Assembly (NCBI RefSeq): GCF_003675875.1
Contig: NZ_RCDI01000003.1
Coordinates: 1 to 64,000 of the forward strand
Source of the DNA: Halostella limicola
Lineage (GTDB): Archaea; Halobacteriota; Halobacteria; Halobacteriales; Natronoarchaeaceae
Direction of reading: 5' to 3'
Length of the DNA stretch: 64,000 nt
Under the pieces are notes generated by a model that was given only the letters and a program-made list of their open reading frames with translations, was not told where the DNA came from and searched no databases. This document shows, in pieces, positions 28,761-51,306 of this stretch (within the stretch, counting starts at the first letter, position 1; every line of letters starts with the position of its first letter). Position numbers and translations under genes: made by a program.

Positions 28761-28835
28761 GGGTTGGTGGTCTAGCCCGGTTATGACGGCTCCTTCACAC
28801 GGAGCAGGTCGGCGGTTCGACTCCGCCCCAACCCA
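28761..28835 (+). tRNA. tRNA-Val (anticodon CAC)
   Basis: A complete 75-nt cloverleaf. The acceptor stem GGGTTGG (28761-28767) pairs with CCAACCC (28828-28834), followed by discriminator A. The anticodon stem GCTCC/GGAGC encloses TTCACAC with anticodon CAC at 28796-28798. The T-arm is GGCGG-TTCGACT-CCGCC. There is no intron and no encoded CCA. Its 3' end is the integration target of the element that follows; integration leaves the gene intact. Confidence 0.95.
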
Positions 28836-28838
28836 CTT
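28802..28838. repeat. attL: left copy of the att direct repeat (within tRNA-Val)
   Basis: A 37-bp direct repeat with 38373-38409, covering the 3' side of the anticodon stem, the variable and T arms, the acceptor end and three bases beyond. Mismatches are at 28809 (T versus C) and 28821 (C versus A). Confidence 0.9.
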
Positions 28839-28902
28839 GCTCGGCGGTTGCCTCGCAAGTTGATGGGCAAGCAGCCTTCCTGCGATTTTTCGCTTTAGAT
28901 TA

Positions 28903-28941
28903 GTTTGGACCCACACGTTCGGCGGTCGTTTGTGTCCAAAC
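28903..28941. repeat. Inverted repeat near the left end of the element
   Basis: GTTTGGAC at 28903-28910 is repeated inverted as GTCCAAAC at 28934-28941, with 23 bp between. It lies about 70 bp inside the element in a non-coding stretch (28839-29125). It could be an arm site for the integrase or a directionality factor; this is inference from position. Confidence 0.4.
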
Positions 28942-29125
28942 CCGATGAGGCCGCGGGGTTCATTCAGAAGGACGTGCTAAGGATATTAGAATTTAACCCT
29001 TGCTAACATCATGGTTTTCCCCCTTCGATCGGTATCTATCTAATGTGTCTTGCTCATACAGTGCTGGATTGAGTTCCGACTTATGCCAAAAATTGATTAG
29101 AGGTCCGTGACGACAATACATCGAG

Positions 29126-29356
29126 ATGAGTCTCCAGATAGAGGACAATACGTTCTACCTGGTACAGTTACCGGAGGAAAAGACGTTACACGAATCTGAA
29201 GATGCAGCAATCAATCATTTAAAGGAGAATGCGGAGAACCTCGATCCCGAAAACGATGAGGTTTCGCTTATCGAGGTATCTGTTGAAGGAGAAGACTGGA
29301 CGATTGCTGAAATGCCTTGGCAGAATATCGCTCTCCGACTGATGGGTGACAAATAA
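29126..29356 (+). CDS. Small acidic hypothetical protein of the element
   Basis: A 76-residue acidic protein: MSLQIEDNTFYLVQLPEE, then a Glu/Asp-rich middle and a C-terminal EMPWQNIALRLMGDK. No known motif. It ends two bases before the ATG of the first ParB-like gene, so the two are almost surely co-transcribed and this protein may act with ParB or modulate it. Its codon use is AT-richer than the chromosome. Confidence 0.65.
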   Translation: MSLQIEDNTFYLVQLPEEKTLHESEDAAINHLKENAENLDPENDEVSLIEVSVEGEDWTIAEMPWQNIALRLMGDK

Positions 29357-29358
29357 TC

Positions 29359-30210
29359 ATGGTCGAATATACTGAAATAGACCCAAACGAGCTGGAAATT
29401 GATGAATTGAACGAACGGAAAGAAGACGTTGGTCCGCATAAGGGGATAGAGTCGCTTGAAGAAAGTGTTCGTCAGCAAGGGGTTATTGAAGCTCCTATTG
29501 TTCGAAACTCAGGTGATGGTAATTACAAGGTGATCGTCGGCCAACGACGAACGCTTGCAGCACAGGCAGCAGGTTTGGATGAGATTCCTGTCAGGATCGT
29601 AGACTGGGATGACGCAGAGGCGATCGAGGCCTCGATCACGGAAAACGTAGATGCCTTTCGGAAATCTGTTTCCCGAACAGACCGTTCCGAGGCTCTCTTG
29701 AAATTGATGAAAATCAATGATTGGACGCAAGAAGAAGCTGCTGAACAGTTAGGTATCAGCAGTGCTCAAGTAGGAGAGTGGTTAGAACGGACCCGTGACG
29801 CATGGGAGGGAACAGACGTTCACGTTTCCAGTAATGGTGAGACTGATTCTGAAACACGGGCAAAGGTTGATCAAGTAGACGACAAGAAGCTTTCTGCTAT
29901 CCGTCGTGCTACTGGAGGAGGGGAGGAAGGAGAAAAATTAGTAAAGAAAGTATCAGAAGATGACATCAGCCAGCGAGAAGTATTAGAGGCAAAAAAGCGA
30001 GCAGACCGAGGTGAAGATTTCGAGAAAGCGATTGAAGAGGTTCACTCGCAACAATCTGCAGAAGGCGATATGCGAGTGAGTACACAAGTAACGTTCACTG
30101 GGGACTATGCAGAAGGCCTGCAATCAGCAGCAAAGACCCGAGGAACTTCTGAAGATCAGATAGTTCGGGAGGCTATTGAGGATTATCTCAAGAGAGAAGG
30201 ATATCTATAG
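29359..30210 (+). CDS. ParB-like DNA-binding protein (first copy)
   Basis: A 283-residue protein with the ParB/Srx-type N-terminal domain: IDPNELEIDELNERKE (about residues 7-22), SVRQQGVIEAPIV, and VGQRRTLAAQAAGLDEIPVRI (about 59-79; the QRR segment corresponds to the GERR box of ParB). A helix-turn-helix follows (WTQEEAAEQLGISSAQVGEW, about 122-141), then a charged linker and a C-terminal ribbon-helix-helix-like end (QVTFTGDYAEGLQSAAKTRG...). ParB proteins bind DNA and load on replicons for segregation or regulation. No ParA gene accompanies it. Confidence 0.85.
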   Translation: MVEYTEIDPNELEIDELNERKEDVGPHKGIESLEESVRQQGVIEAPIVRNSGDGNYKVIVGQRRTLAAQAAGLDEIPVRIVDWDDAEAIEASITENVDAFRKSVSRTDRSEALLKLMKINDWTQEEAAEQLGISSAQVGEWLERTRDAWEGTDVHVSSNGETDSETRAKVDQVDDKKLSAIRRATGGGEEGEKLVKKVSEDDISQREVLEAKKRADRGEDFEKAIEEVHSQQSAEGDMRVSTQVTFTGDYAEGLQSAAKTRGTSEDQIVREAIEDYLKREGYL

Positions 30211-30289
30211 CAGGCGGGCTATTACTTCCACCCCGCTGTAGGTGGTTTTATCAAAGGGGGATGTGAATAGGGAAACATAACGATAACCT

Positions 30290-31186
30290 ATGAGTGATCC
30301 CCTGCCTACGAACGTGCTACGGACCATCGTGACGGATAGTCATTTTAGAAACCAATCAGATAAGAGTACTCGACGTTACAAGGGATATTCTTTCTCGCAG
30401 GGCCTACGGAAATCTATGTCGTATCTCGACCCGGTACAAATACAGGAATTGAAGGCAGAGCGAAACTTTCGCACAAATAGAGAGGATATTCCCGCAGTAG
30501 CAAGTTCCAGCGTGTCTGACGTCGTTACAGCACAAGAAACCGAGGGCATGATTTTCGATGTTGATTATGACCGGGCTGAACACGGCGGGAGCCACTCCTC
30601 GTTCCCTTGGACTGGGGTAAATGATCTCCTCAATCGTCCCTCCACGGTTTACGACGTCCCCATTCGGAGAATGGTTGTCCGGTTTGAATCAGAGGAGTTT
30701 AAGAGCGATTGGGAGGAGGCAATAGTAGAGGCTATAGATCATGATCCCTTCCCTACGGAGTGGATTGAGGGGCCTTTCTATGCAATATTGAATTCTAAGG
30801 ACCCCGGAGAAGCGGACGCAAGAGACCACATCCGTGATGCTCACGAGGAATTTTACTATATTCCCAAGAGTCACGTTGCTGATGGTCACGACGGATTAGG
30901 TTGGACTGTCCGATCCCTTGACTTAGAAGCAATATATTCATATCAAGGCTTTATCGATAAACGGAACCCTATTCTTACAACTCGAGACGGAGACCGAGAG
31001 TATGATTGGACGCCTCGCCGGTTAGAGGACTATATTATGAACTATTTCAATGAGGAAGAATCATACGTAGGACTCATGCATAATGCAGACTTCATTAATC
31101 GATGGAGGAACCTACATTCCACTGATATGACGTCCACGAAGACGTTCATCTGGGAGGCCGACGAAGAGTGGGTGCAGGAAGGGTAA
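30290..31186 (+). CDS. Unknown 298-residue protein between the two ParB-like genes
   Basis: A soluble protein, not recognised. Rich in aromatic and acidic residues, with no membrane segment or signal peptide. Possible features are an SSFPWTGVNDLL stretch near residue 103, and Trp- and Tyr-rich C-terminal half (RRLEDYIMNYFNEEESYVGLM). It lies 79 bp after the first ParB-like gene and 10 bp before the second, so it probably works with them. No nuclease or ATPase motif was found. Confidence 0.7.
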   Translation: MSDPLPTNVLRTIVTDSHFRNQSDKSTRRYKGYSFSQGLRKSMSYLDPVQIQELKAERNFRTNREDIPAVASSSVSDVVTAQETEGMIFDVDYDRAEHGGSHSSFPWTGVNDLLNRPSTVYDVPIRRMVVRFESEEFKSDWEEAIVEAIDHDPFPTEWIEGPFYAILNSKDPGEADARDHIRDAHEEFYYIPKSHVADGHDGLGWTVRSLDLEAIYSYQGFIDKRNPILTTRDGDREYDWTPRRLEDYIMNYFNEEESYVGLMHNADFINRWRNLHSTDMTSTKTFIWEADEEWVQEG

Positions 31187-31196
31187 AAGGGATTCC

Positions 31197-32027
31197 ATGG
31201 ATTTTGCGCTTGTTGACCCTAATGAATTAACGATTGATGAACAGAATGAACGCCGTTCTGATATCGGGGCTGATCCAGATTCAAATGATTCCTTGCGCGA
31301 GTCAATCCGAGAATTAGGTGTAACAGAGGTAATAAAAGCTCGTCAAGACGGAAATGGAGAGCTGAAGGTGTATGCTGGTCAACGTCGCACATTGGCTGCT
31401 CAAGCGGAGCAAATAGATAAGGTACCAGTATTAATTAAGGATCTTGATGATGAGGATGCGTTGATAGAATCTATAGTTGAGAATACTACTCAACTGAAAA
31501 AAGAGGTATCTCGAGAGGACCGGGCAAAAGCAATACAATGGCTGGTTGAACAACAAGGAGGAAAAAAGGAAGTCGCTGATGCCACTGGGTTAAGTCCCGG
31601 AACCGTTCGTAATTGGCTCGAACCCTATAGAGATGAATGGAAAAACACCATATTTCACCCCGAGTATGAAGGAGAGAGAGAAGTTGATCCTGAACAATTA
31701 TCCGATGAGCTTTTGAGAACTATTCGAAAGGTAACAGAAGGAGAACGTGCAGAAGAATTCGCGATTCGAATTATTGAAGAAAAGATCCCGACCAAAGCTG
31801 TAAAGCAGGCAGCTTCTCGGGCTTCTAATGCCGATGAATTCGATGAAAAATTAGACGAAATGCAAGAGAAAGTCACAAAGAGTAGAGATCATGTACAAGA
31901 GAGAGTATACTTAGTCGGTGACGATGCTGAAGCGGTAAAGAAATACGCTAAAACAAGAGGAGTGACAGAACGAGAGGCTATAGAACATTTGACAAAAGAA
32001 AAGTTAGAAGAAGAGGGGTACTATTGA
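31197..32027 (+). CDS. ParB-like DNA-binding protein (second copy)
   Basis: A 276-residue protein with the same architecture as the first: VDPNELTIDEQNERRSD, SIRELGVTEVIKA, then YAGQRRTLAAQAEQIDKVPV (about residues 60-79), an HTH (KKEVADATGLSPGTVRNWL, about 123-141), and a C-terminal segment with YAKTRGVTEREAIEHL that parallels AKTRGTSEDQIVREAI of the first. The two are diverged paralogues. It converges on the methyltransferase gene with only 22 bp between the stops. Confidence 0.85.
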   Translation: MDFALVDPNELTIDEQNERRSDIGADPDSNDSLRESIRELGVTEVIKARQDGNGELKVYAGQRRTLAAQAEQIDKVPVLIKDLDDEDALIESIVENTTQLKKEVSREDRAKAIQWLVEQQGGKKEVADATGLSPGTVRNWLEPYRDEWKNTIFHPEYEGEREVDPEQLSDELLRTIRKVTEGERAEEFAIRIIEEKIPTKAVKQAASRASNADEFDEKLDEMQEKVTKSRDHVQERVYLVGDDAEAVKKYAKTRGVTEREAIEHLTKEKLEEEGYY

Positions 32028-32049
32028 TTGATAAAAGGATACCAGTCTT

Positions 32050-33033
32050 TTAAATAATTTTCCCACTATTCAAAGAAATATGGGGAATAGATCCTTGCTC
32101 TTTTTCCAGTCTTTCTTTTGCAATATCGATGTACTTTTCTTCAATCTCTACATTGACTGAATTTCGACCTATACGGGAAGCTGCTATGCTTGTTGTCCCT
32201 ACACCTGCAAAGGGATCTAAAACGGTATCTCCTACAAAAGAAAACATACGAATCAATCGCTTGGCCAGTTTCACTGGATAAGGAGCAGGATGTTGTTCTC
32301 GAGATTCACCTTTTATATCGTCCCATATCTGCCTAAAGAGCATTTGATGTTTATCAGCTTCAATAACACTCAATATTTTTTCTTCTACGGAGGGAGACCG
32401 ATATCCACCGGGCTTCCGGAACAGTAAAATATATTCAATATCATTCTTGATTACTGCACCCGGTTCATAAGGCTTACCGAGGAACCGAGCATTTCCTCCT
32501 GCTTCAAGAGAAGCATTCCCTATCTTATACCATATAATCGGGGCAAGGTTATCGAATCCTATCTGTGTGGCATGTTCCTGAATTGTCGCGTGAAGGGGGA
32601 GGACACGGTGTCGTCCATGTTCACTTCGTGACCGAAGGACATCACCCACAACGATACAGAGACGACCTCCGGGAATGAGTTTCTTATATACTTCTTCCCA
32701 AACTTGATCTACAAGTTGGTTGAATTGAGCGTACTCGTCTACCTCACCTAACTGTCCATCCGATGCATTTCCGTAATCCTTTAGGTTAAAATAAGGTGGA
32801 CTCGTGAGGGCAAGGTGGACGCTCTCGTCTTCAACCATACTCAAATCTCGAGAATCTGCTTGATAGAGATTATGGTGAGACGGGATCGATTTAACAGCTT
32901 CTTCCACATCTCTCATTCGTTTTTTATCACGTGCAAGCTCAGGGATTTCAGATCGTAGTTCAATACTCGATTTATCTAATAGATCTCGACAACTATCCGG
33001 AACATATTCTCTAAGAGATTGTTTTCCTTCCAT
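32050..33033 (-). CDS. Site-specific DNA methyltransferase (beta-class, N4-C or N6-A)
   Basis: A 327-residue DNA methyltransferase. The catalytic motif TSPPY is at about residues 77-81 and the SAM-binding DPFAGVGTT at about 273-281, the motif IV-before-I order of the beta class, with SPPY most common among N4-cytosine enzymes. Between them lies a long target-recognition part. The start is uncertain: a further in-frame ATG at 33099 adds 22 basic residues, but a TATA-like ATTAAACGC near 33107-33115 would place transcription start after it, so 33033 is used. No dedicated cognate endonuclease is obvious by name, but nuclease-fold proteins lie downstream on the same strand. Confidence 0.85.
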   Translation of the reverse strand: MEGKQSLREYVPDSCRDLLDKSSIELRSEIPELARDKKRMRDVEEAVKSIPSHHNLYQADSRDLSMVEDESVHLALTSPPYFNLKDYGNASDGQLGEVDEYAQFNQLVDQVWEEVYKKLIPGGRLCIVVGDVLRSRSEHGRHRVLPLHATIQEHATQIGFDNLAPIIWYKIGNASLEAGGNARFLGKPYEPGAVIKNDIEYILLFRKPGGYRSPSVEEKILSVIEADKHQMLFRQIWDDIKGESREQHPAPYPVKLAKRLIRMFSFVGDTVLDPFAGVGTTSIAASRIGRNSVNVEIEEKYIDIAKERLEKEQGSIPHISLNSGKII

Positions 33034-33099
33034 GTGATATACTCTATGTCTCCTTTGTCGTCCTTTATTCGTTTTCGTTCTTAAGTTAGGTCGTTTCAC

Positions 33100-33370
33100 T
33101 CTGCCGCGTTTAATACCGATGACGACGCGGTGTGAAAGTGTCTCCTGTGGTACCTTGTTAGGGCGTACTGGGCGAGTTCCGGGCTTCTCACTCCCTCGTC
33201 GCTACGCTCCTCGGTCGTTCCGATGCCGGGCTGTCTCGCTGCCTGGCGTCATCGCGGTTAAACCCAGAATGATTGGACTCGTAGAGATCTTCCTTTCAAT
33301 CACACTGTGTTTCTCCTCGGGGTTCCTACCCAATTAAATGGAAAGAGGTTTATATACCCCCCTCCCCCGA
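33100..33370. other. Non-coding, locally GC-rich stretch inside the element
   Basis: About 270 bp between the methyltransferase and the next gene. Bases 33120-33260 are clearly more GC-rich than the flanking element and resemble host DNA, with no convincing open frame. It could be a relic of earlier insertion or a non-coding RNA; only composition is seen. Confidence 0.35.
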
Positions 33371-33991
33371 TCAGAGCCATTCCATAGTTCCATTATCTGA
33401 TGACCGCCAAGTCTGCTGAGAGTTAACATCAGTTTCATATTTGTCATGCCTCAACATTTTCAGATCGTTATTTCTTACGCGATGAGCTACTTTTCCGTAC
33501 ACACTTTCAAACTGTTCCTTGGTGATGTCGAGATCCTGTCTTAATTCTTGGAAGAAGGGGTCAAGATCATCTGACTCCGTTTGAGGATGACATTCTCGAC
33601 GGTCGTGGTACTGATGTACAACGTAAGCACATGTGGAGAACCCAACAATATCTGATGAGTGGCCCATATTATTTCGCTGAAGTCCGTCAAATAGTCTCGT
33701 TGCTTTCTTTTTCTCCCATTCATCCATCTTGAGCCTATTACCGAGACATAAGATGAGATGCCGATTCATTACGTAGGTGTTGTAAGATTTATTCTGTCGT
33801 TCATGTCCGTTCTGTAAGCCCGAGTTATGGCGGTCAAGATGACAGAAGTACGCACGCTTATTTTGAGGACGGAAATCAGCAGGCCACTCATCCTCACACT
33901 GCCATCTATACCAACCTATTCGTGTAGCGTTGTTTGTATCACAATTCTGCAAGTCGCTATACGCATGGTTCTCTTCATTGGAGTTACTCAT
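33371..33991 (-). CDS. Unknown protein, possibly cyclin/TFIIB-like helical fold
   Basis: A 206-residue protein. Residues about 65-130 (NKSYNTYVMNRHLILCLGN, KKKATRLFDGLQRNNMG, DIVGFSTCAYVVHQYH) have the helix pattern of a cyclin box as in the TFIIB core: helix-small residues-Leu, an A-x-x-L-F helix, then a Gly and an aliphatic helix with A/C-x-x-V. A preceding WYRWQCEDEWPADFRP and a later cysteine/His pair are of unknown meaning. It may be an element-specific transcription factor, but the match is by eye only. Confidence 0.45.
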   Translation of the reverse strand: MSNSNEENHAYSDLQNCDTNNATRIGWYRWQCEDEWPADFRPQNKRAYFCHLDRHNSGLQNGHERQNKSYNTYVMNRHLILCLGNRLKMDEWEKKKATRLFDGLQRNNMGHSSDIVGFSTCAYVVHQYHDRRECHPQTESDDLDPFFQELRQDLDITKEQFESVYGKVAHRVRNNDLKMLRHDKYETDVNSQQTWRSSDNGTMEWL

Positions 33992-34007
33992 GGTTGAGTT
34001 GATCAGA

Positions 34008-34146
34008 CAACTACCTGATGAAGGACGAACGAGATGCCACTCACCAATTAATTACTTTGCGGAAGGAGCGTTCGCCACTGAACGGCCCAGAGAAGCTGTA
34101 TCTCCTCTATTATGAGAAAAGCGGCAATTCCTCTCTCAGGTAGTTG
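34008..34146. repeat. 11-bp inverted repeat bracketing an intergenic gap
   Basis: CAACTACCTGA at 34008-34018 is repeated inverted as TCAGGTAGTTG at 34136-34146, with TGAGT at the outer side of both arms. The interval (33992-34219) has no gene. Candidate roles are a replication origin, a binding region for the ParB-like proteins, or an ancient terminal repeat. Confidence 0.35.
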
Positions 34147-34219
34147 CCTTCACTCAATTAAAGAAGACGTACGACAATAAATGTTTCGTTCCAGTTATTC
34201 TTCCATACATTACGTTTCT

Positions 34220-34426
34220 TTATCTACACGAGGTGGTTTTCGACGGTTCAGGGAAGAATTCAGTCAAAACAGCCCACTCATTGCGGGGCGGGTTACCAAT
34301 AATTGTCCCTGGGGAAGTTCGCTGGTGTAACAACTGATCAAACCAATTGATGTAGATATTTCTCCCCAGCGATAGCACGAATACAGATAATTGGAATCTC
34401 GGATTTCGAATCACCAGGCGGTCCAA
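34220..34426 (-). CDS. Doubtful 68-residue ORF overlapping the nuclease-like gene
   Basis: A TTG-initiated frame whose start overlaps the stop of the PD-(D/E)XK-like gene by 16 bases. It contains IRNPRFQLSVFVLSLG and GNPPRNEW. It might be a coupled small gene or a frame-shifted C-terminal extension of the upstream protein. No homologous family was recognised. Confidence 0.2.
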   Translation of the reverse strand: MDRLVIRNPRFQLSVFVLSLGRNIYINWFDQLLHQRTSPGTIIGNPPRNEWAVLTEFFPEPSKTTSCR

Positions 34427-35019
34427 TGTATCTTGTTATCAAGATCCGTTGATTCGAGTTTTTGAAATTGGATTTTGATCGCCCCTTCGTCAGTATCAAA
34501 GATGACTCTCGCTCGGAGGAGCAATCGGTCTGGACTTCGATTGAGAATTTCCATCACGTCTCGTTGGTCATCTCGAAATTCAGCATATGGACCCGTCTTC
34601 ACCTCACAGAGCACTGTTCGTTCGATATCGTCGTCGCCATAGAGATTCGTGATTTTCAGTGTAATATCTGGCATCCAAGGCTTGTTTTCGTCGGGCCACT
34701 CTTTTAGCACACCAATAGATTCCCGATTACCGTCTTCATCAATGAGGTACTGGTTGATATCCCAATCTTCGCGGGCTTCCAGCTCGATTACCTCGTCACC
34801 GTGTTCTAAAAATGAGTAGTTGTACTGCTGTGGTGTTGGGAGGTAGATAGAGGTGGGATCTATATCAGCGAAGATCGGAAAGAGTTTTTCTGGGGAATCG
34901 TTCAACTGATCACGGAGATAAAAACCGACAATTTTCTCGCCAAAATAGCCCTTGTCGTTAGAATTTAGCGATTTGAAGAAGTCCATCCCCAGAGTTACAG
35001 TACCATGATTACTTGGCAT
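34411..35019 (-). CDS. PD-(D/E)XK nuclease-like protein
   Basis: A 202-residue protein. The likely active site is D118 in PWMPDITLKI, E139 and K141 in TVLCEVKTGPYAEF, with an N-terminal YFGEKIVGFYL that could supply another acidic position. This D-(x)n-E-x-K layout on adjacent strands defines the restriction-endonuclease fold. The predicted start is the ATG at 35019 (MPSNHG); 35055 and 34986 are alternatives with no clear ribosome site. It belongs to the minus-strand block with the HsdR-N protein and another nuclease-like gene. Confidence 0.6.
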   Translation of the reverse strand: MPSNHGTVTLGMDFFKSLNSNDKGYFGEKIVGFYLRDQLNDSPEKLFPIFADIDPTSIYLPTPQQYNYSFLEHGDEVIELEAREDWDINQYLIDEDGNRESIGVLKEWPDENKPWMPDITLKITNLYGDDDIERTVLCEVKTGPYAEFRDDQRDVMEILNRSPDRLLLRARVIFDTDEGAIKIQFQKLESTDLDNKIHWTAW

Positions 35020-35185
35020 ATTGGAAAGGAACCGTGAGTAGTAGCATAAGTTCAACCCAAGGTGAGTAGCGAGTCTTGCCTCGGCCGGTGACCGATAAAC
35101 GCTCTGCCTCCTGTACGGCCTCCAATATTGATCTCTGTTTTATGTTTACAACAATACAGAATATATCCTCACCAATTCCAATATA

Positions 35186-36313
35186 TTACCACTCTCCTAA
35201 GAATTCAACCGAGAGATCTACTTTCTCTGTAAGATCTCTCACCCGGTTCTTCTTATTCTCGGTGTTAAGTGATGTGTGGAGATAGTTTCCGTTGATCAGT
35301 TCATACGGACTCCTCATATCCTCCCCATTGGGGTGTTCTGGTTTACTGTTGATAGAGCAATTCTTCCGAGCACGTGGTGGAAAATGCGGGATCTCTATGG
35401 TATCCATTAAATCGTGTTCTTCTATCAAATAATCAACTGCTGATCCCATATTCCGTTTTTGTAGCGTGTGGGCTCCACTACCATTTTCTGGGATTATTTT
35501 ACCGTCAGAAAATCGAATGACATAACCTTGCCACTCGTGAGATTCTTTAACAATATCTGACGAATGGACAGTAGTATCTTGCTCATTCCGTGCTTGTCCC
35601 GCGGCCTCATCGAATTCTGATGGTGTGTTTTCGCTAACAAATTGGCGCTGTTCACGAAGGACTGAGATGAGACTTTGCACGAATTCACGGGCTTGTTCTT
35701 CGAGATCTATTGTAAGGTGTCCAACTTCGTTTTCTACAGCTTCAGTGACTGCCTGGGTGACATTGTTTTCCTTTTCTTTTAGATGGCGAATGGCTCGGTT
35801 AGTTTCTGCGACCTGCTCGGCGATCTCGTCAGATTTCCCTGATCGAATTGACTCTTTTGTGAGTAGTTCAAGTACACCTGGATTATCAGCGAGGTCATCA
35901 AGGTTGAATTGTACGACGGATACCTCCTCTCCGCCATTCTGGTGTCGATTCTTGGTCAAGACCTCAAATGATTTGCCGTTGGTTAGGATACCCCAGTCTA
36001 CGTCGAGTTCCTGTCTCATGTAACTTCGCAACTGCTGAACTTCGCTATCGGTGAGAGTAGATCGGATCGGCTTTGCCTCAACGAACACCACGGGGGAGTC
36101 CCCAACAAGAAGGGCGTAATCAACATGGGTACTTCCCGATGCCATGGGGATAGTGTACTCCAATGCGACTTCAGTTGAATAGAGGTCCCAACCAAGAAGT
36201 TCAAGAAACGGCTGGACAAGTTTTACCTTCGTATTTTCCTCGTCCATTTGCGGTGAAGATTCGATAAGTTGCTTACATCGCTGAACATACTCGTTTATCT
36301 CGTCCTGATCCAT
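35186..36313 (-). CDS. HsdR N-terminal-type (type I restriction R) nuclease domain protein
   Basis: A 375-residue protein. Residues 25-130 match the HSDR_N nuclease domain: ENTKVKLVQPFLELLGWDL, then VDYALLVG with D65 and VVFVEAKP with E79 and K81, and a downstream Q-rich SEVQQLRSYM helix. No helicase motifs follow, so it is not a full HsdR. A coiled-coil-like middle (about 160-230) precedes a C-terminal domain with a GKIIPENGSG stretch. Standalone HSDR_N proteins are common in archaea; activity and target are unknown. Its location next to a methyltransferase and two more nuclease-like proteins suggests a restriction role. Confidence 0.75.
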   Translation of the reverse strand: MDQDEINEYVQRCKQLIESSPQMDEENTKVKLVQPFLELLGWDLYSTEVALEYTIPMASGSTHVDYALLVGDSPVVFVEAKPIRSTLTDSEVQQLRSYMRQELDVDWGILTNGKSFEVLTKNRHQNGGEEVSVVQFNLDDLADNPGVLELLTKESIRSGKSDEIAEQVAETNRAIRHLKEKENNVTQAVTEAVENEVGHLTIDLEEQAREFVQSLISVLREQRQFVSENTPSEFDEAAGQARNEQDTTVHSSDIVKESHEWQGYVIRFSDGKIIPENGSGAHTLQKRNMGSAVDYLIEEHDLMDTIEIPHFPPRARKNCSINSKPEHPNGEDMRSPYELINGNYLHTSLNTENKKNRVRDLTEKVDLSVEFLGEW

Positions 36314-36382
36314 TGTCAGATTGTGCGTAATGAATCCTTTTTAAAATGTTGCAAATTGCATCCTCTATTGAGTTGACTCTGT

Positions 36383-37060
36383 TTAGTCAACTGTAGGAAC
36401 TCCGAATTTATGATGAATGAAATCTTTCACCCTTTCAATATCCTTTCCCGATGTTGCGTTCTCCAGAAGGGGATTAGGTTTCCCCCGTCTATTCCAGTCT
36501 TCATCGCTCCACCGTAATGATGCCGTACCGCCTGATTTGTATTCACCCTTCTCTTTATTTAATGCCCTAACTATTTCTGGACTAATATCTACAAACTCTC
36601 CTCTATCCGATACACAATCCTCTGATAGTCGAAAAACTTCGTATCGGAAAGGTAAGTTATGATATTCAGTCAATTTTCGTACAAGACCGGCATAATCAAC
36701 TATAAATTTCTCTTCAACATTCGGGGAGAAATAATGCTGAAGGCTGATATAGTCTACACCGAGATAACTGAGAGACGTAGCCTGCCCTATTCCATCGTAA
36801 AAATGCGGCTCTATACCACTTTCCTTTGAATCGAAATATTTTGTTTCTATCGCTTCAATATTCCTATCATTATAGATGACAAGTAGATCTATCTCACTGG
36901 ATACGAACGCATTCCTACCAAACCATTCACCCATATGACCACTAATGTCATGTGATCCAAGATTGACACGAGTATGAACTTCCTTTATTTCATCATACCT
37001 AAATTCATATGCACTTTGTAAGTAATCTTGGAGGTCATTTTCTCTCTTTGGATACGACAT
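36383..37060 (-). CDS. PD-(D/E)XK nuclease-like protein
   Basis: A 225-residue protein with a putative nuclease core: E56 and D58 in SSEIDLLVIYN, and E72-T-K74 in IEAIETKYFD, i.e. D-x13-E-x-K, followed by a helix with Q (GIGQATSLSYLG). This is the pattern of a restriction-endonuclease fold or of a Holliday-junction-type nuclease. The rest has no recognised domain. It lies between the HsdR-N gene and the integrase on the same strand. Confidence 0.6.
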   Translation of the reverse strand: MSYPKRENDLQDYLQSAYEFRYDEIKEVHTRVNLGSHDISGHMGEWFGRNAFVSSEIDLLVIYNDRNIEAIETKYFDSKESGIEPHFYDGIGQATSLSYLGVDYISLQHYFSPNVEEKFIVDYAGLVRKLTEYHNLPFRYEVFRLSEDCVSDRGEFVDISPEIVRALNKEKGEYKSGGTASLRWSDEDWNRRGKPNPLLENATSGKDIERVKDFIHHKFGVPTVD

Positions 37061-37235
37061 AGGTGATAGAACAGAGGAAAAGGATAAAAACTAAACGCCG
37101 ATAATCATCCTCAGATTCTCCCCGCATAATGTGATTAGTGATGTAGTTGCAGGACTGTGCCTAAGGATTGTTTTCAGTGTGTTAGAAGAAAAAATACTGT
37201 CTTGCTATGTCTATTTTTCCTTTCGCGTCATCGAA

Positions 37236-38246
37236 TTAGTCTCTGCTCATCTCAAAGGCTTCACGGCGCAAAACGCGTTTTTCGCTCTTTGTCCGTGCAT
37301 CGTAGTGTTTCTCCAATGTTTTCGTACTAACATTCATCCGGTCTGAGAGCAACTCTTTTGAGTGTCCTTTGTTCAACCATGCCGTGATTGCACTACGGCG
37401 AAGTGCGTGTGGTGGAACCGAGGAAGGACATCGTTGTGCATAATCGTGGTTCTGTGCAGCTTCACAATTGATTTCGTCTCGATTATGAGGACAATCCTGG
37501 GAGTAGTGACAAGGTCGCGTGAGTGCGTTGATGTTTTGTCTCAAATTGGTTCCGGCAGGCCTACCGTATCGAGTCGTGAGAAGTGGCTTTCGTCCCTCAT
37601 CGTCTTTGACTTCTTCGCGGTGTATCGCTATGTAGTCATCCAGTATCTCGCAAACCCACTCGTGTAGGTTCACCTCACGTTCAGCGTTTTGCTTATTCTT
37701 TAGTGGTGTTCCGGTCTTCGGCCGGTGATGGATCTCCACATACTGTTCCTTGGGATAGTAGTCTCGGAGATCAATGGCACGTATTGTACCGAGTCGGAAG
37801 CCGGTATCCCACAATAAGGCAAATAGTGAATGGCGAAGCGTAGCATATTCGAATTTCTCCAGATATTCCAGGATTGCCTCGGCAGTATCGGCCTCTATCT
37901 TAGTATTCCGAGCGTCGTCATCGGGGTTAGGGAGAATCATGTTCTCTGCAAGCCCCACCTCTACAAGATCCATAGATTGCATCCATCGGATGAAAACTCG
38001 GAGTGCGCAGAGATTGTTGTAGAGCGTAACCTCGTTGACCCCACCGTTCTCCCGGCGGTGAATCTTAAAATCGTGGATGTGAAAACCGTCCAGTTCGGTC
38101 ACATCCTCGAGGCCGGCCTCATCGCACCACTCCACAAAGCGTTTGAGCGCGTACTTGTGATTGCGATAAGTGGATTCTGAGACTTCGGGCTTTCGTTCTT
38201 TCAGATACCGTTCGACTGCTCGCTGAGGGCGCATACTTCGACTCAT
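37236..38246 (-). CDS. Tyrosine recombinase/integrase of the element
   Basis: A 336-residue haloarchaeal phage-type integrase. A SAM-like N-terminal domain (about residues 8-100) is followed by a catalytic domain with R151 (DTGFRLGTIR), the box H280-x-x-R283 (PPHALRRSAI), and nucleophile Y315 (LEKHYDART). A four-Cys cluster (about residues 246-273) is typical of haloarchaeal integrases. The start at 38246 follows the conserved SRSMRPQ; a longer frame opens at 38264. The gene is adjacent to the right att copy, as expected for an element that integrates into the tRNA-Val 3' end. Confidence 0.93.
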   Translation of the reverse strand: MSRSMRPQRAVERYLKERKPEVSESTYRNHKYALKRFVEWCDEAGLEDVTELDGFHIHDFKIHRRENGGVNEVTLYNNLCALRVFIRWMQSMDLVEVGLAENMILPNPDDDARNTKIEADTAEAILEYLEKFEYATLRHSLFALLWDTGFRLGTIRAIDLRDYYPKEQYVEIHHRPKTGTPLKNKQNAEREVNLHEWVCEILDDYIAIHREEVKDDEGRKPLLTTRYGRPAGTNLRQNINALTRPCHYSQDCPHNRDEINCEAAQNHDYAQRCPSSVPPHALRRSAITAWLNKGHSKELLSDRMNVSTKTLEKHYDARTKSEKRVLRREAFEMSRD

Positions 38247-38337
38247 GGTTACTCTGAACCACACGCCCTGGGGGTTCGGACAGCGGGCAACGATCCACCG
38301 AATTTGGGCGATTACGTGTGAATTCCTTCCTCATTTT

Positions 38338-38372
38338 GCCGCCGAAGGGCGACGAAATCGCCCGAAGGCGGC
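38338..38372. repeat. Hairpin abutting the right att repeat
   Basis: GCCGCC-GAA-GGGCGA (38338-38352) faces TCGCCC-GAA-GGCGGC (38358-38372) around a 5-nt loop, giving two 6-bp stems separated by a symmetric 3x3 internal loop. It ends at the first base before the att repeat at 38373. It may stabilise the att site or serve as an integrase or terminator structure; function unproven. Confidence 0.5.
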
Positions 38373-38409
38373 GAGCAGGCCGGCGGTTCGAATCCGCCCC
38401 AACCCACTT
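38373..38409. repeat. attR: right copy of the att direct repeat
   Basis: Duplicate of the tRNA-Val 3' region (28802-28838) with two mismatches. It cannot be a functional tRNA because the 5' half is absent. It marks the boundary between element and chromosome; the DNA beyond it is the original downstream neighbour of tRNA-Val. Confidence 0.9.
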
Positions 38410-48939: not shown

Positions 48940-51306
48940 ATGCCGGATAGCGATTACACTATCGGAAACCGCCTCATCGACTACGACGAGGAGAATTATA
49001 ACGAGGAGCTGATCTACTACGGTTCGGTGATAGATCTGCTTGCGCAAAACGAGATCGACATCAATCAGTACAAGCTAGCGAAGTTCATCGACGAGTACGA
49101 GTTCCAGATCCCGGAGTACCAACGCAACTACGAGTGGGAGGAGCCGCAGTGGGAGGACCTCTGGATCGAGATCGAGAAACTGTTCAGCGCGTCGCTCTCG
49201 ACGGAGGGAGAGCGGACCGCCGACGTTTTCTTCGGATCGATGTTCTTCGCGAAGCGCGGAACGTCCGAGGGCGGTAGCACGGACGTCGTCGAGGTGATAG
49301 ACGGTCAACAGCGGCTCACGACGCTGTCTATCTTCTTCAAGGTCATCACCGACATTCTCGACACGCTCGACCCGGAGAGCGGTGACTGTCGCGGGATGGC
49401 GGACGCGCTCCGCAACACCATCCAGAGCGTGCTGTATCTCCCCTCCAGTATTCCGGGACGACAGCGGCCGGCGCTGAACCTGAACGAACACAACAGCGAG
49501 TTCTACGCGGCGCTCGTCGGCGACGCGGAGACGCGGCTCTCGTTCATCCAGGAACGGGAAAGCGTCCACGGGAATCGAAAGCGACACGCCATCCGGGTTC
49601 ACGATTACGCCGACAAACTGAACCTCCCGCCGGAACTGTACGAGACGTACGAAAACGACAACAAACACTTCGACAACGCGAACGACCGAATACTCCGGGC
49701 GTACGAGTACTTTTACGAGCGTCTCTCCGAGACCTTGGCCGATACGTTCGAAACCGACGACGAGCGGGTGCGAGCGCTCACGAACGTCGTAAACTACGTT
49801 CTCAACTCGTTTATCGTCGGATACTTCGAGATCACGTCCAACCGGTCGTCGCTCATGATGAACGTGTTCCAGATCCTCAACGACCGCGGGATGAATTTGA
49901 AGAAAGTCGACATCATCAGGGCCCGGATCGTGAGTCGACTCCGTGAAAACGGGAACGAGGACGCGGAGGACGTGGAGAAGTTCGAGGCGATGATCGAGAC
50001 CCTGGACAACGACTACGGCGACGTCGAGGACTTCCTGACCGACTACATCACCGCGAACGAGGACGGTATCAGGTCGAAAACCGACGTCACGAAGAACCTG
50101 TTAGAAGCGTTCGAACAGGGCGCCAACGGGAACCGAACTATCGACCCGCTGCTGACGACCAAAGAGGAAACTCGAGAGTTCCTGAACGACGTCGAGACGT
50201 ACTCCGATTACTACCACCGGATCATCGACCCGGACCGACGCATCCAGCTTCGCGACGATACCCGCGAGGAGCAGGTGAACGAGATCATAACACGGTTGAA
50301 CAAGCTGGGGTACGAGCAGTGGCGGCCGCTGGTACTTCTCGTCTACTCCCGCGTCCGAGAGAGCGCGACCGACGAGAACGAGGCCTTCTTCGTGGACCTC
50401 CTCAAGGTGATCGAGAACGTGAGCTGTCGTATCTCCCTGACCAACGTCTACCCGAGCAAACAGGACCCGGTGTATGTCGCGGCGTGCCAGTCGTTCAGAC
50501 AGCGACCGTTCGACCGATCCCTGTTTGAGGAGATCGTCGACGACGTCAAGGACCGGGCGCAACAGCTTTTCTTCGAGTCGTTCGTCGACACTGTCAACGA
50601 GAACTACGACTGGAGCAACACGTACGCCCGGGTCCTACTCTGGAAGATGACGTCCGAAACGTTTTACTCGGAAGACGGTGCCGTCGAGAACCGGCTGAAC
50701 GTCGGTACCATTCACCTCGAACACGTGTTGCCGCAGTCCCCGATCCGAAGCGATGCGCCCGCAGACGAGCGGTACGACTGGCTCCAACACTTCTTCCGGA
50801 CCGACGACGGGGATTCGGCCGTCGCGACGATCATCGAGCGACTGATCGCCGACGATGCGATCGAGAACCGCGATTCGCAACTCCAGGAGATCGCGGACTA
50901 CTTCATCCACGACCTGGGCAACATGGTCCTTCTCGAATCGGAGGACAACCTCAGCCTCGGCAACAAGCCCTTCTCGGAGAAGATCCTCACGTACTACGAG
51001 GAGACGGACTTCGAGGCGATCAGTGTCAACGAGTACTTCACCATGGGGCGCGGTGAACTGACAGAGACGGACATCGACAGGCTTCGGAGCGAGGACCCGC
51101 CCAAATCGCTCGACGGGTTCTGGAACTACGAGCGGCTGACGGAGCGGAAAGCGGCGCTGCTTCACGCGCTGCTCGAATCGGTGCGGTTCGACGGGATCCT
51201 CGACGACGAGTTCGAACCGTACGACATCTCTTCGAAGGTAGATCGGGAGACAAGCCGACGCCTCGGCCTGATCGAGGCGAACCACGGGACCGTCGTGGAG
51301 GACTGA
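48940..51306 (+). CDS. DUF262-DUF1524 fusion, GmrSD-like modification-dependent endonuclease
   Basis: A 788-residue protein that joins both GmrSD domains. The N-terminal DUF262 part shows IPEYQRNYEW (residues 57-66) and DGQQRLTTL (121-129), the ParB-like NTPase/DNA-binding motifs. The C-terminal DUF1524 part has the HNH-type HLEHVLPQS and LGNMVLLESEDNLSLGNKPF. In E. coli GmrSD cuts glucosyl-hydroxymethylcytosine DNA, so this is a candidate type IV restriction enzyme against modified phage DNA. The ATG at 48940 follows an AGGAG four bases earlier and a TATA-like run near 48845. It is followed, 60 bp on, by the MrfB/MrfA-like pair. Confidence 0.85.
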   Translation: MPDSDYTIGNRLIDYDEENYNEELIYYGSVIDLLAQNEIDINQYKLAKFIDEYEFQIPEYQRNYEWEEPQWEDLWIEIEKLFSASLSTEGERTADVFFGSMFFAKRGTSEGGSTDVVEVIDGQQRLTTLSIFFKVITDILDTLDPESGDCRGMADALRNTIQSVLYLPSSIPGRQRPALNLNEHNSEFYAALVGDAETRLSFIQERESVHGNRKRHAIRVHDYADKLNLPPELYETYENDNKHFDNANDRILRAYEYFYERLSETLADTFETDDERVRALTNVVNYVLNSFIVGYFEITSNRSSLMMNVFQILNDRGMNLKKVDIIRARIVSRLRENGNEDAEDVEKFEAMIETLDNDYGDVEDFLTDYITANEDGIRSKTDVTKNLLEAFEQGANGNRTIDPLLTTKEETREFLNDVETYSDYYHRIIDPDRRIQLRDDTREEQVNEIITRLNKLGYEQWRPLVLLVYSRVRESATDENEAFFVDLLKVIENVSCRISLTNVYPSKQDPVYVAACQSFRQRPFDRSLFEEIVDDVKDRAQQLFFESFVDTVNENYDWSNTYARVLLWKMTSETFYSEDGAVENRLNVGTIHLEHVLPQSPIRSDAPADERYDWLQHFFRTDDGDSAVATIIERLIADDAIENRDSQLQEIADYFIHDLGNMVLLESEDNLSLGNKPFSEKILTYYEETDFEAISVNEYFTMGRGELTETDIDRLRSEDPPKSLDGFWNYERLTERKAALLHALLESVRFDGILDDEFEPYDISSKVDRETSRRLGLIEANHGTVVED

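What the first reader, a model, noticed from the sequence alone, without database searches (positions are those of the whole stretch)
28802..38409. 9.6-kb integrative element in tRNA-Val with a restriction-like cargo and no viral genes
The duplicated tRNA-Val 3' end, integrase next to attR, lower GC and changed codon use show directly that a mobile element is integrated here. Its content is unusual: two ParB-like proteins, a methyltransferase, three nuclease-fold proteins and a possible transcription factor, with no capsid, portal, ParA or known replication gene seen. This is the strongest candidate for an undescribed mobile defence or satellite element.
Basis: partly seen in the sequence, partly recalled or inferred. 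Interest (0 to 1): 0.85.

Follow-up and report, generated by a model that had tools for sequence, protein, structure and literature searches.

The report
tRNA-Val island with ParB restriction module
A 9.6-kb mobile DNA element sits in a valine tRNA gene of a salt-loving archaeon; elements with related integrases at this gene often carry restriction enzymes, and this one also carries an undescribed, rare four-gene unit (two ParB-like proteins around a protein of unknown fold) that elsewhere has slotted in between the two genes of a restriction system.

Summary
The element is real. A 37-bp repeat (35/37) of the tRNA-Val(CAC) 3' end lies 9,571 bp apart, an integrase abuts attR, and GC is 0.45 against 0.68. 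In congeneric genomes the same tRNA site is empty (two), carries only att scars (one), or holds a different 9.5-kb element (one). The integrase is of the pleolipovirus (HRPV-9/SNJ2) type. Relatives sit at tRNA-Val in about 20 other genomes with elements of 1.9-15 kb, several carrying type IIG R-M, Hma-like or CARF cargo. So the element is a new member of a hotspot family of defence-carrying islands; I found no support for a satellite.

The novel part is a conserved gene string, orf76-ParB1-orf298-ParB2. ParB1 and orf298 occurred in exactly the same 7 genomes of about 390. In 8 of 9 loci the module lies beside a DNA methyltransferase or a nuclease. In two genomes it sits cleanly between a methyltransferase and a restriction gene that are about 80-130 bp apart in relatives, and the methyltransferase tree forces at least three gains, losses or swaps. 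There is no ParA, and orf298 has no detectable relatives outside the family. Most likely it is a restriction-associated accessory module; function is inferred, not shown.

The parts
28761..28836 (+). tRNA-Val (CAC), attachment gene; 3' end restored on integration
   Evidence: ARAGORN
28802..28838 (+). attL copy of the 37-nt direct repeat
29126..29356 (+). orf76: small acidic protein, first gene of the conserved module; no family match
   Evidence: homologues 44-65% identical directly upstream of ParB1 in all 8 other loci
29359..30210 (+). ParB1: ParB_N + HTH + C-terminal RHH; GERR box reads GQRR
   Evidence: Pfam; ParB/Noc structures by profile; invariant GQRR
30290..31186 (+). orf298: conserved protein of unknown fold, marker of the module
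   Evidence: no Pfam/PHROGs/PADLOC/NCBIfam/PDB match; homologues in 8 other loci
31197..32027 (+). ParB2: second ParB-like protein, 37% identical to ParB1; GQRR
32050..33033 (-). N4/N6 DNA methyltransferase (TSPPY motif), converging on ParB2; usual partner REase absent here (ORF open from 33099)
   Evidence: Pfam 2.9e-38; 63-75% identical to MTases beside REases elsewhere
33371..33991 (-). orf206: phrog_12649 family, unknown function; 52% homologue in another tRNA-Val element (L110)
34411..35055 (-). orf214: orphan; D...EVK string only
   Evidence: no family or plasmid match; motif by eye
35186..36313 (-). HsdR N-terminal-like (PD-(D/E)XK) nuclease-fold protein, no helicase
   Evidence: Pfam HSDR_N_2 1.5e-10, phrog_4225 endonuclease 3.4e-21; homologues on haloarchaeal plasmids
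36383..37060 (-). orf225: orphan; D...ExK string only
   Evidence: no family, plasmid or viral match; motif by eye
37236..38264 (-). tyrosine integrase, pleolipovirus/SNJ2-like type
   Evidence: Pfam; 36-43% to pleolipovirus integrases; 53-78% to integrases in other haloarchaea, nearly all beside tRNA-Val where examined
38373..38409 (+). attR copy of the 37-nt repeat

Best explanation
A 9.57-kb integrative element entered the 3' end of tRNA-Val(CAC) by recombination of its integrase between the chromosomal site and a 37-bp copy on the element, leaving the tRNA gene whole (shown by anatomy; excision not tested). It belongs to a family of haloarchaeal tRNA-Val islands with related integrases and exchangeable, often restriction-type cargo (shown by comparison). 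Its cargo is a DNA methyltransferase without its usual restriction partner, an HsdR_N-type nuclease-fold protein, three small unknown proteins, and a conserved four-gene module orf76-ParB1-orf298-ParB2 (shown). The module is a discrete unit that has repeatedly become associated with, or separated from, methyltransferase-restriction pairs and stand-alone nucleases (shown). Most likely (inferred) it is an accessory part of restriction-type defence: the two ParB-like proteins bind and probably spread on specific DNA sites, orf298 joins them to, or controls, the neighbouring nuclease or methyltransferase, and orf76 is a small regulator.
For: Repeat, integrase and GC. Same site in congeners: no element in G129 and G031; only att scars in G329, where att-like copies follow the tRNA within about 250 bp and the chromosome resumes at window 41504; a different 9.5-kb element carrying a type IIG R-M protein in G053. 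About 20 integrase relatives, nearly all with paired att copies at tRNA-Val; cargo includes type IIG enzymes (L112, L118; L115 by similarity), Hma B/C-like proteins (L110) and a CARF protein (L122). Module: ParB1 and orf298 in the same 7 genomes of 384 and 394 searched. Neighbours are an MTase in the window, L010, L011, L012 and L014; a GIY-YIG-like nuclease matching the defence candidate PDC-M57B in L009 (2.8e-70), with its frameshifted homologue in L008; and a nuclease-like protein in L021. Clean nesting: MTase and REase are 82 bp apart in L047 but 3.0 kb apart in L012, and 130 bp in L044 but 3.1 kb in L014, the difference being the module. In the MTase tree L012 groups with module-less L047 and L014 with module-less L044 (100/99 each), and at least 3 label changes are forced.
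Against: Neighbourhood is not function. The module also lies in a tailed provirus (L013/L024) without ParB2 or MTase, and in L010 and L011 no nuclease was recognised. AlphaFold2 models of orf298 are unusable (pLDDT 43). ParB proteins commonly serve partition or regulation. The association rests on 9 loci, some related.
Confidence: 0.6

Rival explanations
1. The module is a maintenance unit (partition or replication control) of mobile elements: two ParB-like proteins bind a centromere-like site and orf298 replaces ParA or starts replication; its closeness to R-M genes reflects two maintenance cassettes travelling together.
For: ParB_N domains of the partition type; the window element has no other recognisable replication gene; four loci carry an integrase near by, one is a megaplasmid and one a tailed provirus.
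Against: No ParA-like or replication match; in L008, L009 and L021 no related integrase or window att repeat was found near the module; no conserved inverted repeat or shared 9-mer upstream of orf76; L010 and L011 carry primase-like or helicase-like genes of their own (recognised by motif only) beside the module.
Confidence: 0.25
2. The module is a transcriptional controller of the adjacent restriction or nuclease genes (like C proteins of R-M systems), delaying nuclease expression until the DNA is methylated.
For: Both ParB proteins have HTH regions and ParB1 a C-terminal RHH; the module sits between the M and R genes in L012 and L014.
Against: Four genes are far more than a C protein; most relatives of the same M-R pair do without it; the dyad before the REase gene is present with and without the module.
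Confidence: 0.15
3. The island is a decayed pleolipovirus or a satellite of one that kept the integrase and lost virion genes.
For: The integrase is most like those of HRPV-9, HHPV4 and SNJ2 among phage records.
Against: No pleolipovirus structural or replication protein matched among the ten genes; integrase relatives define many non-viral islands of 1.9-15 kb with varied cargo.
Confidence: 0.05

Closest known systems
SNJ2-type haloarchaeal tyrosine integrases and integrated elements (pleolipoviruses SNJ2, HRPV-9, HHPV4; reviewed in PMC8371274)
   Same: integrase 36-43% identical over about 95% of its length; tRNA 3'-end attachment; lineage confined to Halobacteria
   Different: no virion or known replication genes; tRNA-Val; restriction-type cargo
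Type II restriction-modification systems with the MTase-REase pair of L044-L051 and L054; XhoI-family REase beside the same MTase in L053
   Same: same MTase family, 63-75% identical
   Different: the window copy lacks the REase and has the ParB module and an HsdR_N protein instead
ParB/Noc/Spo0J CTPase clamps
   Same: ParB_N plus HTH, profile match to 6t1f/7bm8 and Noc structures at 1e-15 to 1e-18
   Different: GQRR in place of GERR, C-terminal RHH, no ParA, two paralogues flanking an unknown protein
PADLOC candidate defence system PDC-M57
   Same: the GIY-YIG-like nuclease next to the module in L009 is PDC-M57B by profile, 2.8e-70
   Different: no other module protein matches a PDC-M57 model
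Hma and type IIG systems on sister tRNA-Val islands
   Same: same integration site and integrase family
   Different: different defence cargo

Membership tests
tRNA-integrated mobile element | duplicated tRNA 3' end flanking foreign DNA with an integrase | tested here: met
tRNA-integrated mobile element | unoccupied or differently occupied orthologous site in relatives | tested here: met
tRNA-integrated mobile element | excision and circular attP form | not testable with these tools
   needs PCR or reads
SNJ2-type integrase lineage | at least 30% identity over at least 60% of the protein (criterion of PMC8371274) | tested here: met
   36-43% over 93-96% with pleolipovirus integrases
Pleolipovirus provirus | spike, VP3/VP4-like and ATPase genes, replication gene | tested here: not met
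   no PHROGs match among the ten genes
Type II restriction-modification system | modification methyltransferase | tested here: met
Type II restriction-modification system | cognate restriction endonuclease beside the MTase | tested here: not met
   REase homologue found beside the MTase in 9 of 15 other loci plus L012 and L014; in the window the genes beside the MTase are ParB2 and orf206 and none of the ten window genes is that REase by sequence
Type II restriction-modification system | shared recognition sequence of both activities | not testable with these tools
   no methylation data
ParABS partition system | ParB-type DNA-binding CTPase | tested here: inconclusive
   ParB_N and HTH present; GERR changed to GQRR
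ParABS partition system | ParA Walker ATPase | tested here: not met
   no match
ParABS partition system | parS-like repeats | tested here: inconclusive
   none conserved upstream of orf76; site may lie elsewhere
Satellite of a virus | packaging or capsid-interference genes | tested here: not met
   no match
Satellite of a virus | dependence on a helper virus | not testable with these tools
   needs infection experiments

The most novel reading that the evidence does not exclude
orf76-ParB1-orf298-ParB2 is an undescribed anti-virus module: ParB-like clamps load on invading DNA and, through orf298, license an exchangeable neighbouring nuclease (PD-(D/E)XK, GIY-YIG) or methyltransferase, moving between haloarchaeal R-M loci, islands and proviruses.
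Probability: 0.3. Interest if true: 0.85.

Novelty: new variant of a known kind. Interest (0 to 1): 0.52.

Why it matters
It points to a rare but tightly conserved ParB-X-ParB gene set that slots precisely between the modification and restriction genes of an ordinary type II system and swaps nuclease partners. If it acts in defence, ParB-type DNA clamps would have a role in restriction, outside chromosome and plasmid partition. It also shows that tRNA-Val in haloarchaea is a hotspot where related integrases bring in interchangeable restriction cargo.

Tried and rejected
Satellite or decayed virus: no viral gene found. Homologues of orf214 and orf225 on plasmids, and of orf225 in viral contigs: none. 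A shared parS-like repeat upstream of the module: none. Literature searches for a ParB unit within R-M loci found no match; Fullmer et al. (PMC6471742) list a 'ParB-like nuclease' among haloarchaeal R-M candidates (arCOG01875), whose identity with ParB1/ParB2 I could not test. L053 and L056 dropped out of the MTase tree because my sequence trimming cut them too short.

Full report
Observation. The window holds one tRNA gene, tRNA-Val(CAC) at 28761-28836. Its 3' end is repeated at 38373-38409: 37 nt, 35 identical, 9,571 bp apart, with no other place in 64 kb reaching 26/37. DNA between the copies has GC 0.453 against 0.680 outside. A tyrosine integrase lies next to attR, with the catalytic residues in place by eye.

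Gene content. On the + strand: orf76, ParB1, orf298, ParB2. On the - strand: methyltransferase, orf206, orf214, HsdR_N-like protein, orf225, integrase. Profile searches support the two ParB proteins, the methyltransferase, the HsdR_N protein and the integrase; orf206 belongs to phrog_12649, a family of unknown function with distant relatives in tailed haloviruses; orf76, orf298, orf214 and orf225 match nothing convincing. The claim of three nuclease folds is therefore shown for one and only suggested for two, and the transcription factor is not supported.

Mobility. Left-flank DNA identifies the same tRNA-Val locus in congeneric genomes. G129 and G031 show no integrase of this type and no low-GC insert there. 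G329 shows only att-like scars within about 250 bp, after which chromosome homologous to window 41504 onward resumes. G053 carries a different element of about 9.5 kb between its own att copies, with an integrase 47% identical and a 1,302-aa type IIG restriction protein. Empty, scarred and differently occupied sites among close relatives show that this is a hotspot; excision itself was not tested.

The element family. Integrases 53-78% identical to the window's occur in about 30 places. Of 20 neighbourhoods examined, those held completely nearly all lie at tRNA-Val with paired att copies and elements of 1.9-15 kb. Cargo includes type IIG R-M proteins (L112, L118, and L115 by similarity), Hma B/C-like proteins (L110) and a CARF protein (L122); several carry primase-like or helicase-like genes that I recognise only by motif. 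In phage records the integrase is closest to pleolipovirus enzymes (HRPV-9 43%, SNJ2 38%), within the SNJ2 lineage reviewed in PMC8371274.

The module. orf298 was found in 7 of 394 sampled Halobacteria genomes, and ParB1 at E<=1e-35 in exactly the same 7 of 384. Two further loci, a Haloferacaceae megaplasmid and Halorussus ruber, came from other collections, and family-wide searches added no other locus. In eight of nine loci the order is orf76-ParB1-orf298-ParB2; the ninth, in a tailed provirus with tape-measure, sheath and baseplate genes, lacks ParB2. ParB1 and ParB2 are paralogues, 37% identical. In ParB1 the GERR nucleotide box reads GQRR in all eight aligned sequences, and the window's ParB2 also has GQRR; from general knowledge of ParB enzymes this could affect CTP hydrolysis (inference).

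Link to restriction. The module lies next to a methyltransferase in five loci, a GIY-YIG-like nuclease in two (in one of them, L009, matching the PADLOC candidate PDC-M57B at 2.8e-70; in L008 the gene is split over frames) and another nuclease-like protein in one (the GIY-YIG and the L021 nuclease calls rest on motifs by eye plus the PADLOC match). The methyltransferase family occurs in 19 of 388 genomes; of 15 copies without the module, 9 sit beside one REase family, and at least one other beside a XhoI-family REase (L053). That the commoner partner is the restriction enzyme is inferred from its constant pairing with the MTase and a D...DAK string; it has no family match. In L047 and L044 the M and R genes are 82 and 130 bp apart; in L012 and L014 the same genes are separated by about 3.0-3.1 kb that is just the module. 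In the methyltransferase tree L012 groups with L047, and L014 with L044, both at 100/99 support, and at least three changes of the module label are forced. The module has thus been inserted, lost or swapped by recombination more than once. In the window the M-ParB2 junction is kept and the REase is missing.

Mechanism. Shown: integration anatomy, site history, exchangeable cargo, module unity and nesting. Inferred: the ParB proteins bind DNA sites as clamps, and orf298 couples them to neighbouring nucleases or methyltransferase. The main rival is a maintenance (partition or replication) unit; absence of ParA, of conserved upstream repeats and of related integrases in three loci speaks against it without excluding it. 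orf298 could not be modelled.

Verdict. The element is a new member of an expected kind; the four-gene module and its precise nesting in R-M loci are the new part, hence 'new variant of a known kind'. I found no description of it in the papers searched, which do not cover all literature.

Noticed in passing
L142 (G329) 1650-1940, reverse-complement coordinates: Three att-like copies in about 250 bp behind the tRNA-Val, like scars of repeated integration and loss.
   Followed up: partly
L044, L053: One MTase family is paired with two unrelated REases, an unnamed family and a XhoI-family enzyme; L044 carries the unnamed REase followed by a protein resembling the XhoI-type one.
   Followed up: partly
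L012 and L014 before the REase; L047 likewise: A CCGCGAG-N3-CTCGCGG dyad just before the REase start, with or without the module: possible control element.
   Followed up: no
L008 and L009: The same module-plus-GIY-YIG island lies beside infB in genomes of two genera, with about 90% identical proteins and two further unknown genes.
   Followed up: no
L012 5740-6528: An 80% homologue of the nuclease-like protein next to the module in L021 lies beside the integrase, MTase and module of L012.
   Followed up: no
window 49001-51000: A second stretch of lower GC (0.58-0.59), not examined.
   Followed up: no
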